Below the pieces are notes generated by a model that saw only the letters and a list, made by a program, of their open reading frames with translations, was not told the DNA's origin and searched no databases. A stretch of DNA of 64,000 nt from Anaerolineae bacterium (GTDB taxonomy: Bacteria; Chloroflexota; Anaerolineae; Promineifilales; Promineifilaceae), in contig SLGK01000118.1 in the NCBI GenBank assembly GCA_007123775.1, forward strand, positions 1 to 64,000, read 5' to 3'. The position numbers were made by a program, and so were the translations under genes. Numbering within the stretch: position 1 is the first letter of the stretch; every line of letters starts with the position of its first letter. This document shows positions 44,109 through 53,323 of the stretch, piece by piece.

Positions 44109-45212
44109 TCAGGTCAACGCCTGTTGGTAATCAGGTATAGGCAGGCCAGCAAAGGCCTCCCGAACCGTTTTGTACGGCCTTGTAAACAAACCAGGCCTGT
44201 CACTATGGGTTGGCGTGGGAAAGGCAGGTTTGGCGGCAATATCCTGTCTGGTGCCCAGGAATATCAGCCGTTTCCTTTTTTGTGCATTGCCATAATGGGC
44301 AGAATTTAGAATGGCGTGATCCACCTTATACCCAATGGTTTTGGCTTCCGTAAGAATGTCTGCCAGCAGCTTGCCTTTGGCAATGCCTTTTAGATTTCTT
44401 ACATTCTCCATGACAAAATAAGCCGGGCGAATTTCCTGTACGAAGCGCAAGAACTCGAAAATTAGAGCGCCTCTGGGATCTCTGACGCCTTTTTGCTTAC
44501 CGGCCTGGCTGAAAGATTGGCAGGGTGGCCCGCCATATACTAAGGATATATCTTGGGCTTCGACACCACACGCCGATAAAACTTCAACTGCGTTTAACTG
44601 CGATATATCGTGATTAAAGATTTTGACTTGATGACCAAAATAGCCAGCTAAGGTATCACACCTGTCTTGTTCAACCTCAACACAGCCAATTGTGACAAAA
44701 CGGCCGTTTTCAGATGATCCAGCGCGGTCTAAAGCAATGTCAAAACCACCAGCCCCGCTAAACAAACTCAGGGCCAAAAACTGCTTTTGGGTTGGTTGAT
44801 GCTCTCTAGCAGCTTCCAAGACAGAACGAAAAATAGCCTCCCCCATTTCCACTGGTACAGCATCACCTATTTGTCTTTGTACACTGCTCAGCGTTCCCCT
44901 AAACTCAAGGTCATCAGGAAAGCCTTGTAATCGGGCTGCTTCTCGTGGGGTAATAAAGCGGTCTTCAAAAGGATGGACAAATTTATTAAAAATGTAGCCG
45001 GTAACAGTTAGAGAAGGCTTGTCAGGCTCCAGGCGAATCATCCGTAAGTTTGGCCCCCCTTTTCGATTGGGGTCTTCTTTTACGTAATAACGAAAGCTCT
45101 CATGCCATAATTCTTCTGGCAGGTCCTGCATTTTTTCACCGATACCCAGGGCATTGATTCGTCGTTGCACCGTTTTGCCAACTTGTCTGGGTTGATGGTT
45201 ATATACTTGCAT
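44109..45212 (-). CDS. circularly permuted C5-cytosine DNA methyltransferase
   Basis: Motif order IX (PREAARLQGFPDD) - X (QRQIGDAVPVEMG) - I (LSLFSGAGGFD) - IV (GGPPCQSFSQAG) - VI (FVMENV) - VIII (QKRKRLIFLGTR). Confidence 0.93.
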   Translation of the reverse strand: MQVYNHQPRQVGKTVQRRINALGIGEKMQDLPEELWHESFRYYVKEDPNRKGGPNLRMIRLEPDKPSLTVTGYIFNKFVHPFEDRFITPREAARLQGFPDDLEFRGTLSSVQRQIGDAVPVEMGEAIFRSVLEAAREHQPTQKQFLALSLFSGAGGFDIALDRAGSSENGRFVTIGCVEVEQDRCDTLAGYFGHQVKIFNHDISQLNAVEVLSACGVEAQDISLVYGGPPCQSFSQAGKQKGVRDPRGALIFEFLRFVQEIRPAYFVMENVRNLKGIAKGKLLADILTEAKTIGYKVDHAILNSAHYGNAQKRKRLIFLGTRQDIAAKPAFPTPTHSDRPGLFTRPYKTVREAFAGLPIPDYQQALT

Positions 45213-45226
45213 GAAGTACGTTCCTC

Positions 45227-46474
45227 TTAAAAGTCAAATACCTTATTGATCCACTCGTCCCGTGAAAATGTTTGTGTAATGGCAATTATGCCATCAAACA
45301 GATTGTACAATACTGTGTCAGGTGCCAGATCGGAGGCGATTCTTACTTGTGCTGAAGTGGAGCGCGTCCAGATTATATCTTTCAAAGAGGCCAGGTAATC
45401 CTCGAAGTGTCTAACAGCGTGAATGTTAGACACAACCCCTACCAAAAACTTCAGGTCTTCCACTGGTTTGCCGTCAGAACCTAACTTGATAACCTGGTAG
45501 ATAGCCTTCTTGATGTCATCGGTTCGGTCCATACCCACGCTCGTTTTGCCGTCTGACACAGTTTCGTAACCAGACCCCGTGCGACGAGCAGGCCAACTAT
45601 CCGGACGGGGGCTGGGATGACCACAGGCATTTGTGAGCCAATAGACTGATTCCTGGCTTCTCTGGCCATAGGCTTGTAACGAAGCAGCCCAGAATTCAGC
45701 ATAAGCCGTGAAAAAAGTTGGGTCTTCTATCAATAGTTTTGTCAATCCCCGATAAGCCCACTCTGTATCATGGACATCCTGCCTGATGCCGATGGGGAAG
45801 GTTTTGTCGTGCCAGCTACCGCTTTGGGCATTGTAGGTTGGCACAAAGAGATTCATTTGTGTACCAAAAAGGTATGAAAAATCGGTGACTCTGTGAGATG
45901 CGGCTTGCGTTTCGTTGTCAGTATCAATGATCAGGCTTTGGGAAGCAACGTGTAAGGGTAGGGTGAGCAGCGGTGCTGCTTTAATTTCAGCAAACATAAC
46001 TGTCACTGGCGTCGTCGCTTGATCAACAAAGATTATGTCTATTGGTTCTGACCCTTTTAAGACGGCAACATTCAAGCCCTTCGAGGTGAACAGTTCGCTC
46101 AAAAAATGCGCCAGTAAACGTGAAGTACGACGGCCAATAATACCAGACCCCGGTTTGTTGGCAGCATGAAAATGAAACTGGTTGTCCAGGCCGCATCGTG
46201 GGCAGATATTGGTGTAGGGGTAGTAGAGTGCAGGCGCAGGCTCCGGGCAATAAACCCAGCCGATATGTCCGACAGAACGATAGTATTCAGCAGCAACAAT
46301 CAAGTCAAAAGCAGCGGCCAACAGCGCCCGTTTGGAAACGGCCGTTGTGCCGCCAACCGAATCTACAATGGTCAATAGTTCTCTTATCAATGCTCTTTCG
46401 GCAAGCGTCACCTGAAACGGCTGGGCTGTTTCTACTATCTGAAGAATTGTTTCCCGATTATTTGCTGCGCTCAT
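45227..46474 (-). CDS. candidate type II restriction endonuclease (PD-(D/E)XK-like)
   Basis: EPIDIIFVDQATTPVTVMFAEIKAAP nuclease-like motif; CPRCG Zn-like knuckle; adjacent to C5-MTase. Confidence 0.7.
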   Translation of the reverse strand: MSAANNRETILQIVETAQPFQVTLAERALIRELLTIVDSVGGTTAVSKRALLAAAFDLIVAAEYYRSVGHIGWVYCPEPAPALYYPYTNICPRCGLDNQFHFHAANKPGSGIIGRRTSRLLAHFLSELFTSKGLNVAVLKGSEPIDIIFVDQATTPVTVMFAEIKAAPLLTLPLHVASQSLIIDTDNETQAASHRVTDFSYLFGTQMNLFVPTYNAQSGSWHDKTFPIGIRQDVHDTEWAYRGLTKLLIEDPTFFTAYAEFWAASLQAYGQRSQESVYWLTNACGHPSPRPDSWPARRTGSGYETVSDGKTSVGMDRTDDIKKAIYQVIKLGSDGKPVEDLKFLVGVVSNIHAVRHFEDYLASLKDIIWTRSTSAQVRIASDLAPDTVLYNLFDGIIAITQTFSRDEWINKVFDF

Positions 46475-46478
46475 AGGT

Positions 46479-46943
46479 TTATGACGGGCCGTACTTTTTC
46501 ATTACCTTCTCGCTAACCTCGCCTACATCTTCACCGACGGCGTACAGGTAGCGGCGCGAGGAATCCTCGCTCATATATTTGAACTGCTTGGCGATGGCTT
46601 TGGCCGTTTTGTCTACGCCGTCATCGGCCACGCTGCCTTGCAGCCAGTCGCCGAACGAGCCATGTTCGTCGGCAAGTTCTAGCATGGTGCGGGCATTGTC
46701 TACCACCGCCTTGATCTTGGCCGCGTAGCGAATGATGCGCTCATCCTCGCTGAGGGCCTCGATCTTCTCCTCATTGTAGTCGGCCACGCGGCCGACGTCG
46801 AACTCGTCAAAGGCGGCCAGAAAGCCGTCCCATTTGCCTTCGACGACCTGCCGATTGAGGCCGCCCATAAAAATCACTTTGGTCATCATTTCCAGATAGC
46901 CCGCGTCGTTGTCGGGGCGCTGTCCGGGGGTTACGTGTTTCAT
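46479..46943 (-). CDS. Tag-like (3-methyladenine DNA glycosylase I superfamily) protein
   Basis: YLEMMTKVIFMGGLNRQVVEGKWDGFLAAFDEFDVGRVADYNEEKIEALSEDERIIRYAAKIKAVVDNARTMLEL resembles Tag core; Zn ligands of classical Tag not seen. Confidence 0.65.
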   Translation of the reverse strand: MKHVTPGQRPDNDAGYLEMMTKVIFMGGLNRQVVEGKWDGFLAAFDEFDVGRVADYNEEKIEALSEDERIIRYAAKIKAVVDNARTMLELADEHGSFGDWLQGSVADDGVDKTAKAIAKQFKYMSEDSSRRYLYAVGEDVGEVSEKVMKKYGPS

Positions 46944-46962
46944 TGATTTTTCTCCTTAATTA

Positions 46963-47037
46963 TGTGACGGAGGACCGAGGATGGAAGACGGAGAAGCTGT
47001 TTGTTCTCGGTCCTTCGTCCTTCGTCTTCGGTCCATT
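46963..47037. repeat. heptamer (GACGGAG) inverted tract
   Basis: gacggaggaccgaggatggaagacggag ... ctcggtccttcgtccttcgtcttcggtcc. Confidence 0.8.
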
Positions 47038-47067
47038 TATTATTGTTTTATCACAACTTGCCCATCC

Positions 47068-50161: not shown

Positions 50162-53100
50162 TTACTGGTCGAGAAGTACGGTCGCATTGGGGAATGGCCT
50201 GCCGGTGGCGTCGTAAGCAGGCAAGCGTGCAAATGTCCCGTTGTCCACCCAATAAAAACCCACCCCAATCTCGTAGGTTTCATCCGCCGCCGGCAGCGGC
50301 AGCCAGACCGGATCGGCAATCAATTCACCTGCCTGCCATTGGCCGGTGGGGTACGTGCCCCGCTGCGGCATGGCGTCATCCTGGCTCAGCGGCGGGCCGG
50401 CTTCCGGCCCCAGCAGATGGGCAAAGCGGGTATAATCCTGCGCCCCGCCCCGCAGCGCCTCCCAGTAAAACGTCAGCGCCAGACCATCCCCTTCGATCTC
50501 AAGCCGATAGCCACGCAGCGCCAGCAGCGGCCCGGATTCGTCGTGGTACACGGCCGTTGTCTCTACCAAATCCGGCGGCAAGTCGGCCAACTGGGGTTGT
50601 GTGGGTACAAACTGCCAGCCCGCCGCGCCGGTGGCCAACTGCCCCAGGCGGCGTATGGCCACCGTCTGCCCGCCGGTCACTTCATAGAGCCAGGCCATCA
50701 GGAAAAATGAGCCGTCATCACCCGCCGGCTCCGGTAGGGGGATGGCTACCTGATCGTCAACCCACTGCTGCGGCGGCCACAGGCTGCTGGGCCGAAAGCC
50801 GTGTCCCGGCTGGAGGTCGTACTGCTGCCGCAGTTGGCCCTGTTCATCCAGCAGGCGCAGCGACAGGTTGTAGTTGGGACCAATCGGCCGGGGCGTGGCG
50901 TACCGCAGGTGGAGCGTCAGCGCGTCGGGGCCAATCTGGGCAGCTTCGGCCAGGACGTCCAGCCGGGGCGGGGCGGGATCGGGTACAGTAGGGTTGAGGC
51001 GCAACGGCCGTAAATAGAGACCGCCGCGCCGCTGGGCTGAGCCGGGTGTGAGGGCGACGCCGTCACCTACCTGCACATAGGGCACGTAGAGGCCGGTCGG
51101 GGATGTGATGGGCAGGTCGAACTGAAAATCGGACCAGGCTGTGCCGGGCTGGTCCCATCTGATCTGTTGGGAAAGCAGCAGCGGCACCGTGACGCCGCCG
51201 GGCTGGGGGCGCGGGTGGGCCGGCGTAGCCAGGCCAACCGTAATGGGCGTACCGGCTGCGGCCTTCAGGTTCAGACGAATGGTTAGCCGTTGCCCGACAG
51301 TCAACGCATCCTGGCTGTAGTCGTAGCCGTGCAGGATGGCCCCGTTGCTAAAGGCAATGCCCGCCGGGCTGTGGTGCAGGTAGCCCAGTTGGGCAAAATC
51401 CCAGCTTTGCGTGCCGGAGGCCAGCGGTTGGGGCGAACGGCCGTGTAGCCCGGCGCTGACCAGCAGTAACACCAGCGTAGCGGCCAGTAACGGCCGTCGC
51501 TGGCGGCGCAGCCACGCCCAGGGATGCAGCCACCAGAGCCAGAGCAGCAGCGACAGCAACGAAACCAATTCGGCCACCCGGCGTACTGTCGTCCGCTCTA
51601 GTTGCAGCGTCAGATCGTGGCTGCCTGCTGGCAGATCAAGCATAATGAGGCCGGTTCCGGGAGACGGCCGTATCTCAATTGGTTCCCCATTTAGCCGCGC
51701 CGTCCAGCCGGGCCAGTGGAGTGTGGGCAGCACCAGCGTGGCCGGACTGTCTGCCACGAACTGCCACTGCTGCCGCGTCGTTTGCCCGGCGGCCAGTTTC
51801 GCCTGGGGGACGTCGCCGGTCAAAATCTGGGGGCGATGGCGTTCGCCCGTCTCCAGCCAACCGCTAGTAAAGGGGCGGGGCTGGACGGTGTGGGGCAGAT
51901 ATTCGGCGCTGACGGTGGTGCCAATGTTGCCGGTAAACCATTCATATTGGGCCAGCGATTCGGCCGTGACGTCGGCATCGGTCAGGGCAAGATGGTCGGT
52001 TTGCAGTCCGCCCAGGCCGCTGATAGCCATCAGCAGGCAAAGGGCGGGAACCAGCCAGCGCCGCCAGGGGAGCAGCGCCAGCGCCCCCGTTGCCAGGGCC
52101 GTGAAGATCGCCTGCACCGACAAAAAGCGCCAGGGAAATTGGGTGAAGGAGAGCAGCGGTAAATGGTCCCAAAGCAGCCGGGAGAGCGGCGTCAGCATGA
52201 AGGTGGCTACGAATAGACCGATAACCAGGAAGACGATACGTGCGCCTAGACCTGACAGGTCTTCAAGACCTGTCAGGTCTGGTCTCCATTCTACGAAGCC
52301 CAACGCCGCCAATCCCAACAGGGCCAATACCGCCTGAACCAGCCCCATGCGAAAGGCGTTGCCGCCGTCAACCGTATAATCAAACAACAAGCTGCTCTGG
52401 ACCAGATCGCCGCTCAAAAAATGGTTGCTGTAGTGGAAATAGCCCTCCGTCACCGGACCCAGTTGGGCCAGCGATTGCTCCGCCAACGCGGGCACAAAAA
52501 ACCAGGCGGCCAGCCCCAACGCCAGCAGTAAAGAAATCGTGATGCGTGATGCGTAATGCGTAATACGTAATGCGTAATGCGTGATGCGTAATGCGTGATG
52601 CGTCATGCCGAACAGCAAAATGGCTAACAGCAGGAAAGGCGAAAAAATAAGTGCGGAGATGTTGTGGCTCAAAATGAGCGCCGCATATAGCAGCGCTAAT
52701 TGACCATTGACCATTGACCGTTGACCATTGACCATTCTCAGGATGGCCAGGATTAGCCAGGGGTATAAGGCCATGGCCCAGAATTCGGCCAGGGAGTCGC
52801 CGCGCACGTAGACGTTGACCATGTGGAAGGGGGCGAAGGTGTAGGCAACGGCCGTTAACAGGCCGGCCCATTCGTGGCGTAGTGGGTAGTGGGTAGTGCG
52901 TAAGGTGTTGTTTTCAGGTAGAGACCAGAAGGTGCGGCCGAGTTGGTAAGCGCCCCAGGCGGCAACGAGGAAGCCGCTGAGCTGGGCCAGGTGGATGGCG
53001 CGGATGAAGCCGAAGCCGAGGAAATAGAAAACGGCCGTGATGTACAGCGACAGCGGCGCGTAATAGTTGTAAAAGGGGTAGCCATAGCCGTAGTTGGCAT

Positions 53101-53323
53101 CTGGCATCCAGCGGACGGGGAAGTGGCCGTCGCTCAGGGCGGTGGCAAGCTGGTGCAGCCGTTGCAGCAAAAAGGGGCTGTCACCGCCGCCGCGCGTGTT
53201 TAACAGCCCCGGTTCGGCCAGCACCGGCCAGGCGGCCACAACAGCTACCATAATAACGGCCAGTTGAAACCAGTAACCGTGAGGCGTAATGCCTGATGCG
53301 TGACGTCTAATTGAGGCCATCAA
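50162..53323 (-). CDS. large multi-TM membrane protein (glycosyltransferase/YfhO-like)
   Basis: Many TM segments, YNYYAPLSLYITAVFYFLG; contains heptamer-derived peptide repeats. Confidence 0.75.
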   Translation of the reverse strand: MMASIRRHASGITPHGYWFQLAVIMVAVVAAWPVLAEPGLLNTRGGGDSPFLLQRLHQLATALSDGHFPVRWMPDANYGYGYPFYNYYAPLSLYITAVFYFLGFGFIRAIHLAQLSGFLVAAWGAYQLGRTFWSLPENNTLRTTHYPLRHEWAGLLTAVAYTFAPFHMVNVYVRGDSLAEFWAMALYPWLILAILRMVNGQRSMVNGQLALLYAALILSHNISALIFSPFLLLAILLFGMTHHALRITHYALRITHYASRITISLLLALGLAAWFFVPALAEQSLAQLGPVTEGYFHYSNHFLSGDLVQSSLLFDYTVDGGNAFRMGLVQAVLALLGLAALGFVEWRPDLTGLEDLSGLGARIVFLVIGLFVATFMLTPLSRLLWDHLPLLSFTQFPWRFLSVQAIFTALATGALALLPWRRWLVPALCLLMAISGLGGLQTDHLALTDADVTAESLAQYEWFTGNIGTTVSAEYLPHTVQPRPFTSGWLETGERHRPQILTGDVPQAKLAAGQTTRQQWQFVADSPATLVLPTLHWPGWTARLNGEPIEIRPSPGTGLIMLDLPAGSHDLTLQLERTTVRRVAELVSLLSLLLWLWWLHPWAWLRRQRRPLLAATLVLLLVSAGLHGRSPQPLASGTQSWDFAQLGYLHHSPAGIAFSNGAILHGYDYSQDALTVGQRLTIRLNLKAAAGTPITVGLATPAHPRPQPGGVTVPLLLSQQIRWDQPGTAWSDFQFDLPITSPTGLYVPYVQVGDGVALTPGSAQRRGGLYLRPLRLNPTVPDPAPPRLDVLAEAAQIGPDALTLHLRYATPRPIGPNYNLSLRLLDEQGQLRQQYDLQPGHGFRPSSLWPPQQWVDDQVAIPLPEPAGDDGSFFLMAWLYEVTGGQTVAIRRLGQLATGAAGWQFVPTQPQLADLPPDLVETTAVYHDESGPLLALRGYRLEIEGDGLALTFYWEALRGGAQDYTRFAHLLGPEAGPPLSQDDAMPQRGTYPTGQWQAGELIADPVWLPLPAADETYEIGVGFYWVDNGTFARLPAYDATGRPFPNATVLLDQ
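52248..52280. other. 33-bp palindrome AGACCTGACAGGTCTT-C-AAGACCTGTCAGGTCT inside CDS
   Basis: 16-bp perfect arms, 1-nt centre. Confidence 0.96.
52541..52607. repeat. heptamer (ATGCGTA) tract inside CDS, encodes ITHYALR repeats
   Basis: atgcgtgatgcgtaatgcgtaatacgtaatgcgtaatgcgtgatgcgtaatgcgtgatgcgtcatg. Confidence 0.9.
52700..52738. repeat. heptamer (ATTGACC) tract inside CDS
   Basis: ttgaccattgaccattgaccgttgaccattgaccattc. Confidence 0.9.

What the first reader, a model, noticed from the sequence alone, without database searches (positions are those of the whole stretch)
44109..46943. Three-gene operon: Tag-like glycosylase + candidate PD-(D/E)XK nuclease + circularly permuted C5 methyltransferase
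Three minus-strand genes are separated by only 4 bp and 14 bp. The methyltransferase next to an EPID...FAEIK nuclease-like protein suggests a type II R-M system of unknown specificity. A Tag-superfamily base glycosylase placed first in the operon is not a standard R-M component. It could repair methyltransferase-induced lesions or act as a third restriction/repair factor. The pairing is inference from gene order and motifs.
Basis: partly seen in the sequence, partly recalled or inferred. Interest (0 to 1): 0.82.

Follow-up and report, generated by a model that had tools for sequence, protein, structure and literature searches.

The report
Ordinary restriction-modification pair, bystander glycosylase
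Two of the three genes are a horizontally acquired DNA-cutting and DNA-protecting pair of a widespread family, probably related to the enzyme BssHII; the third, a glycosylase-like gene, is a native neighbour and not part of the system.

Summary
The three ORFs and the 4-bp and 14-bp gaps are real. Two of them form a Type II restriction-modification (R-M) pair. The 415-aa protein R matches a PADLOC Type II restriction-enzyme profile end to end (E=1e-109). It carries D146/E163-x-K165, invariant in 69 relatives, and its AlphaFold model (pLDDT 95) has the PD-(D/E)XK strand order. The downstream protein M is a circularly permuted C5-cytosine methyltransferase of the M.BssHII topology. In 80 of 84 R loci the only recurrent neighbour is a methyltransferase; the other four are cut by contig ends. 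The Tag-like gene T stands beside R only in this window; its homologues lie elsewhere without R or M. T is GC-rich (GC3 74%) like its neighbours, R and M are not (48, 43%). T also lacks Tag's E38, W46 and zinc ligands. The three-gene system is refuted, the R-M pair confirmed. One unforeseen observation: the R family pairs with either the permuted C5 enzyme or an unrelated TSPPY-type (N4-cytosine-like) enzyme, with at least three switches on the R tree, one in the window R's closest relative. Recognition of GCGCGC is likely by homology but was not shown here.

The parts
45227..46474 (-). R: 415-aa Type II restriction endonuclease with PD-(D/E)XK-type motif D146...E163-x-K165, putative zinc site C76/C91/C94/C284, and conserved DRTDDIKK block 316-323
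   Evidence: PADLOC REase_II PDLC03440 E=1.2e-109 full length; invariant catalytic residues in 69 relatives; AlphaFold pLDDT 95.2 with helix 110-131, strands 136-140, 147-151, 158-164
44109..45212 (-). M: 367-aa circularly permuted C5-cytosine DNA methyltransferase (target-recognition region and motifs IX-X precede I-VIII)
   Evidence: Pfam DNA_methylase 2.1e-64; PADLOC MTase_II 2.5e-84; motif X before motif I; partner of R in 62 loci
45213..45226 (-). 14-bp R-M gap; purine-rich AAGAGGAA just upstream of M (overlapping the R stop) looks like a ribosome-binding site
   Evidence: sequence
46479..46943 (-). T: Tag-fold (Adenine_glyco) protein, a native neighbour judged not to belong to the R-M system
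   Evidence: Pfam PF03352 1.6e-19; model matches TAG structures with TM 0.76; not linked to R-M anywhere else; GC3 74% against 43-48%

Best explanation
Window 44109-46474 is a horizontally acquired two-gene Type II R-M cassette that lies directly behind an unrelated native Tag-like gene. R is a PD-(D/E)XK restriction endonuclease that cuts a short, probably palindromic, unmodified site. M, a circularly permuted C5 methyltransferase, puts a methyl group on a cytosine of the same site in host DNA, so R cuts only incoming unmethylated DNA. The most likely site is GCGCGC or a close relative, as for BssHII and AscI. Shown by computation: homology, intact catalytic motifs, gene pairing, foreign composition, non-linkage of T. 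Inferred: enzymatic activity, specificity, and defence function.
For: PADLOC REase_II full-length hit. D146/E163/K165 invariant in 69 homologues. High-confidence model with the PD-(D/E)XK strand order, whose top, though weak, PDB matches are HindIII and EcoRV. A methyltransferase lies beside R in all 80 loci with enough sequence: permuted C5 in 62, TSPPY type in 18. T is absent from all other R loci, and R and M are absent beside 29 T homologues. R/M GC is 48/47% and GC3 48/43%, against T at 57/74% and other neighbours at 61-65/74-77%. R is patchy: 4 of 198 genomes (own and relatives). Permuted topology as in M.BssHII (PMC5944983). BssHII and AscI are homologous REases (PMC4081073). A C5 methyltransferase gene next to a REase gene in Methylococcus gives Gm5CGCGC in E. 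coli (PMC13390346); three Methylococcales loci (L074, L075, L084) are members of the present family.
Against: No sequence of BssHII, AscI, MCA1616 or MCA1617 could be placed in the family directly, because none was found in the collections held. GCGCGC is not specifically avoided in the host genome. Foldseek found no significant solved-structure match for R. The 4-bp gap to T leaves co-transcription, and perhaps translational coupling of R to T, possible in this genome.
Confidence: 0.88

Rival explanations
1. A three-component system in which T repairs methyltransferase-made lesions or removes a modified base as an extra restriction factor.
For: 4-bp gap and same strand; T has a Tag fold.
Against: T adjacent in 0 of 83 other R loci; T homologues elsewhere lack R and M; G015 holds an R-M pair and a T homologue on different contigs; composition mismatch; Tag E38->V23, W46->R31, and no cysteines for a zinc site.
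Confidence: 0.04
2. R-M pair of the same family whose site differs from GCGCGC (for example another C+G palindrome such as GGCGCC or CCGCGG, or an 8-bp AscI-like site).
For: GC-rich palindromes other than GCGCGC are about as depleted in R-bearing Chloroflexota loci; no specific GCGCGC depletion in G000.
Against: Known relatives as reported in PMC4081073 and the methylome-based Gm5CGCGC in Methylococcus centre on GCGCGC; R relatives at about 50% identity usually share specificity (general knowledge).
Confidence: 0.3
3. R is no longer a nuclease and M is a solitary methyltransferase with a regulatory role.
For: In several cyanobacterial loci R is split by stops while M is intact (L026, L032, L048).
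Against: In the window R is full length with every invariant residue present.
Confidence: 0.07

Closest known systems
BssHII R-M system (GCGCGC; circularly permuted M.BssHII)
   Same: C5 methyltransferase permuted in the variable region before the TRD (Type H of PMC5944983); separate REase and MTase genes; R matches a 417-aa PADLOC REase_II model end to end
   Different: Direct sequence comparison with BssHII could not be made; specificity not measured; host is a Chloroflexota bacterium known from an assembly of 344 contigs
AscI (GGCGCGCC) and the R branch with TSPPY methyltransferases (L063, L070, L072, L073, L076, L080)
   Same: R homologous at 26-29% identity; AscI is stated to be homologous to BssHII (PMC4081073)
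   Different: That branch pairs with an unrelated TSPPY methyltransferase, not a permuted C5 enzyme; that it is the AscI branch is a guess from the second PADLOC model PDLC03413
DNA-3-methyladenine glycosylase I (Tag)
   Same: T shares the helical Tag fold (TM 0.76 to 2ofk) and Pfam PF03352
   Different: T is shorter, has no cysteine (no zinc site) and lacks E38 and W46; not part of an R-M system
HaeIII / CbeI (both GGCC)
   Same: Precedent for one site being protected by m5C in one system and m4C in another (PMC3425538)
   Different: In the present family the two methyltransferase types alternate among homologous REases, including close relatives

Membership tests
Type II restriction-modification system | Adjacent genes for a separate endonuclease and a DNA methyltransferase | tested here: met
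   R and M adjacent, 14-bp gap; pairing in 80 of 84 loci, the other 4 cut by contig ends
Type II restriction-modification system | Endonuclease and methyltransferase act on the same site | not testable with these tools
   Needs digestion and methylome data
PD-(D/E)XK nuclease | D ... (D/E)-x-K residues at the ends of adjacent core strands | tested here: met
   D146, E163, K165 in 69/69 sequences; strands 147-151 and 158-164 after helix 110-131
PD-(D/E)XK nuclease | Significant fold similarity to a solved member | tested here: inconclusive
   Best PDB matches HindIII and EcoRV but E about 0.6 and TM at most 0.21
BssHII-type R-M | Circularly permuted C5 methyltransferase with motifs IX-X before I-VIII | tested here: met
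   Motif X precedes I in the window and in adjacent complete C5 partners; topology as described in PMC5944983
BssHII-type R-M | REase homologous to BssHII | tested here: inconclusive
   Matches two unlabelled PADLOC REase_II models, PDLC03440 and PDLC03413; BssHII sequence not available here
BssHII-type R-M | Recognition of GCGCGC | tested here: inconclusive
   GCGCGC is the most depleted palindromic hexamer in pooled R loci but not specifically in the host genome
Tag 3-methyladenine DNA glycosylase | Adenine_glyco domain / Tag fold | tested here: met
   PF03352 1.6e-19; TM 0.76 to 2ofk
Tag 3-methyladenine DNA glycosylase | Base-binding E38 and W46 and Cys/His zinc site | tested here: not met
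   E38->V23 and W46->R31 in the alignment; T contains no cysteine
Three-gene T-R-M operon as a conserved unit | Co-occurrence of all three in relatives | tested here: not met
   0 of 83 other R loci have T; 0 of 29 T-homologue loci have R or M

The most novel reading that the evidence does not exclude
The restriction enzyme has repeatedly changed its protecting methyltransferase for one of a different chemistry (permuted m5C enzyme to or from a TSPPY, presumably m4C, enzyme) while keeping its own identity. This includes a swap in the window R's sister lineage (L005), whose methyltransferase came from a distant branch of the R-M family.
Probability: 0.75. Interest if true: 0.5.

Novelty: new member of a known kind. 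Interest (0 to 1): 0.33.

Why it matters
It removes a tempting but wrong 'glycosylase-assisted restriction' system and replaces it with a well-supported R-M pair. The family-wide survey also shows one nuclease family guarded by two unrelated methyltransferases. That makes it testable whether m5C and m4C at the same site protect equally and how a cell survives the exchange of its protecting enzyme.

Tried and rejected
Pfam, NCBIfam and PDB sequence searches gave nothing for R. GCGCGC avoidance as a test of specificity did not discriminate: the host ratio GCGCGC/CGCGCG (712/451) lies in the middle of genomes without R, and in the 583-kb host sample many other palindromes are equally or more depleted. 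Searches for M. capsulatus MCA1617 in Methylococcales genomes found only other members. The PADLOC model PDLC03440 hit none of 14 control genomes. Plasmid and phage collections gave one distant R relative each. The Xu et al. 1997 BssHII paper is not in the library. T as a functional partner was rejected for lack of linkage, mismatched composition and lost active-site residues.

Full report
Observation. The three minus-strand ORFs are as stated: T 46479-46943, R 45227-46474 and M 44109-45212, with gaps of 4 and 14 bp. M is a C5 methyltransferase (Pfam E=2e-64) whose motif X comes before motif I, i.e. circularly permuted. T is a Tag-family protein by Pfam. R has no Pfam, NCBIfam or PDB sequence match, but matches the PADLOC Type II restriction-enzyme model PDLC03440 over residues 6-415 at E=1.2e-109, and PDLC03413 at 1e-19.

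R as a nuclease. A scan of 85,462 species genomes gave 80 R loci across Chloroflexota, Cyanobacteriota, Bacteroidota, Bacillota, Pseudomonadota, Armatimonadota and archaea. In an alignment of 69 of these R proteins (window R included) D146, E163 and K165 are invariant, and C76, C91, C94 and C284 nearly so, a probable zinc site. The DRTDDIKK block is also invariant, but one of the scan patterns contained it, so that invariance is partly by selection. AlphaFold gives pLDDT 95.2, with a helix (110-131) followed by strands 136-140, 147-151 (D146 just before it) and 158-164 (E163, K165 at its end), the PD-(D/E)XK order. The global fold has no significant solved match; the best matches among 350,542 PDB chains are HindIII and EcoRV, at E about 0.6.

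Pairing. Of 84 R loci (the window's copy included; [quoted passage not shown] The remaining four are cut by contig ends: three (L004, L061, L081) run off within R, and L060 shows only the start of a C5 methyltransferase. No other gene recurs widely beside R except what is expected between close relatives, or out-of-frame shadows of the methyltransferases; one mixed cluster of 11 loci was not examined further.

T is a bystander. T homologues are common in the class (68 of 118 genomes), but no T is next to R in any of 83 other R loci, and no R or M lies beside 29 T homologues within the 1.5-kb flanks fetched. In the same-family genome G015, the R-M pair and the T homologue lie on different contigs. 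GC3 is 74% in T and 74-77% in the surrounding genes, but 48% in R and 43% in M: the R-M pair is the foreign insert, and T belongs to the host. T keeps the Tag fold (TM 0.76 to 2ofk). In the alignment to E. coli Tag, E38 becomes V23 and W46 becomes R31, and T has no cysteine for the zinc site. That these residues matter for 3-methyladenine recognition is established knowledge of Tag; E38Q and Y16F mutants of the S. aureus enzyme are among the solved structures.

Specificity. Natural permuted C5 methyltransferases include M.BssHII and enzymes of the Alw26I/BsaI/Esp3I group (PMC5944983). BssHII (GCGCGC) and AscI (GGCGCGCC) are homologous REases (PMC4081073). Methylococcus MCA1616, a C5 methyltransferase gene beside the putative REase gene MCA1617, yields Gm5CGCGC when expressed in E. 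coli (PMC13390346), and N. meningitidis has a GCGCGC m5C R-M system (PMC7973814). Three Methylococcales loci belong to the present family (L074, L075, L084), but MCA1616/1617 themselves could not be retrieved. GCGCGC is the most depleted palindromic hexamer in the pooled R loci (148 seen, 310 expected), but other GC-rich palindromes are nearly as depleted. In the host genome it is not singled out (712 GCGCGC against 451 CGCGCG; 96 against 307 expected in a 583-kb sample, rank 20 of 64). I therefore put GCGCGC at about 65%, by homology only.

Methyltransferase exchange. On the R tree the two partner types need at least three changes (bootstrap range 3-4; window R and L005 are sisters with support 99/93). 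L005's R is 55% identical to the window R and 28% to those of L076 and L080. Its TSPPY methyltransferase is 58% identical to L080's and 47% to L076's, but only 29-34% to those of its nearer R relatives L012-L018, L037 and L042; the methyltransferase tree puts it with L076 and L080 (100/100). R and M in L005 thus have different histories. m4C protection by these TSPPY proteins is inferred from the motif. HaeIII (m5C) and CbeI (m4C), both GGCC, are a precedent for two chemistries guarding one site (PMC3425538).

Verdict. The window holds a new member of a known kind: a Type II R-M pair of the probable BssHII type, next to an unrelated Tag-like gene. The three-component idea is not supported.

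Noticed in passing
whole window and host genome G000 (e.g. inside R near 46345 and inside M near 44705): A highly iterated palindrome ACGGCCGT (often AACGGCCGTT): 95 copies in the window and 7,598 in the 5.59-Mb genome, against 214 for the reversed control. Thousands of copies occur in most genera of the same family and only background in the other families tested. G010 instead has 3,665 copies of TGCCGGCA and 14 of ACGGCCGT. HIP1-like but with a different sequence; no paper found.
   Followed up: partly
46479-46943 and loci L086-L114: A Chloroflexota-wide subfamily of short Tag-fold proteins has A or V in place of the Tag residue E38; the subgroup holding T also lost W46. Function unknown.
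   Followed up: partly
L005:5788-9126: Mosaic R-M pair: R close to the window R, methyltransferase of the TSPPY type close to distant L080/L076.
   Followed up: yes
L026, L032, L047, L048; G499:C359: R is split by stops or frameshifts; in the cyanobacterial loci L026, L032 and L048 the methyltransferase stays intact, suggesting decay of R first (L047 has both broken; M not examined in G499).
   Followed up: no
46960-47040: Imperfect inverted repeat (GGACGAAGGACCGAG ... CTCGGTCCTCCGTC) between the GNAT gene and T, possibly a terminator or a dispersed repeat (by eye).
   Followed up: no
50162-53323 (protein segment MTHHALRITHYALRITHYASRIT): Short near-tandem repeat units inside the large membrane-protein-like ORF (by eye).
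   Followed up: no
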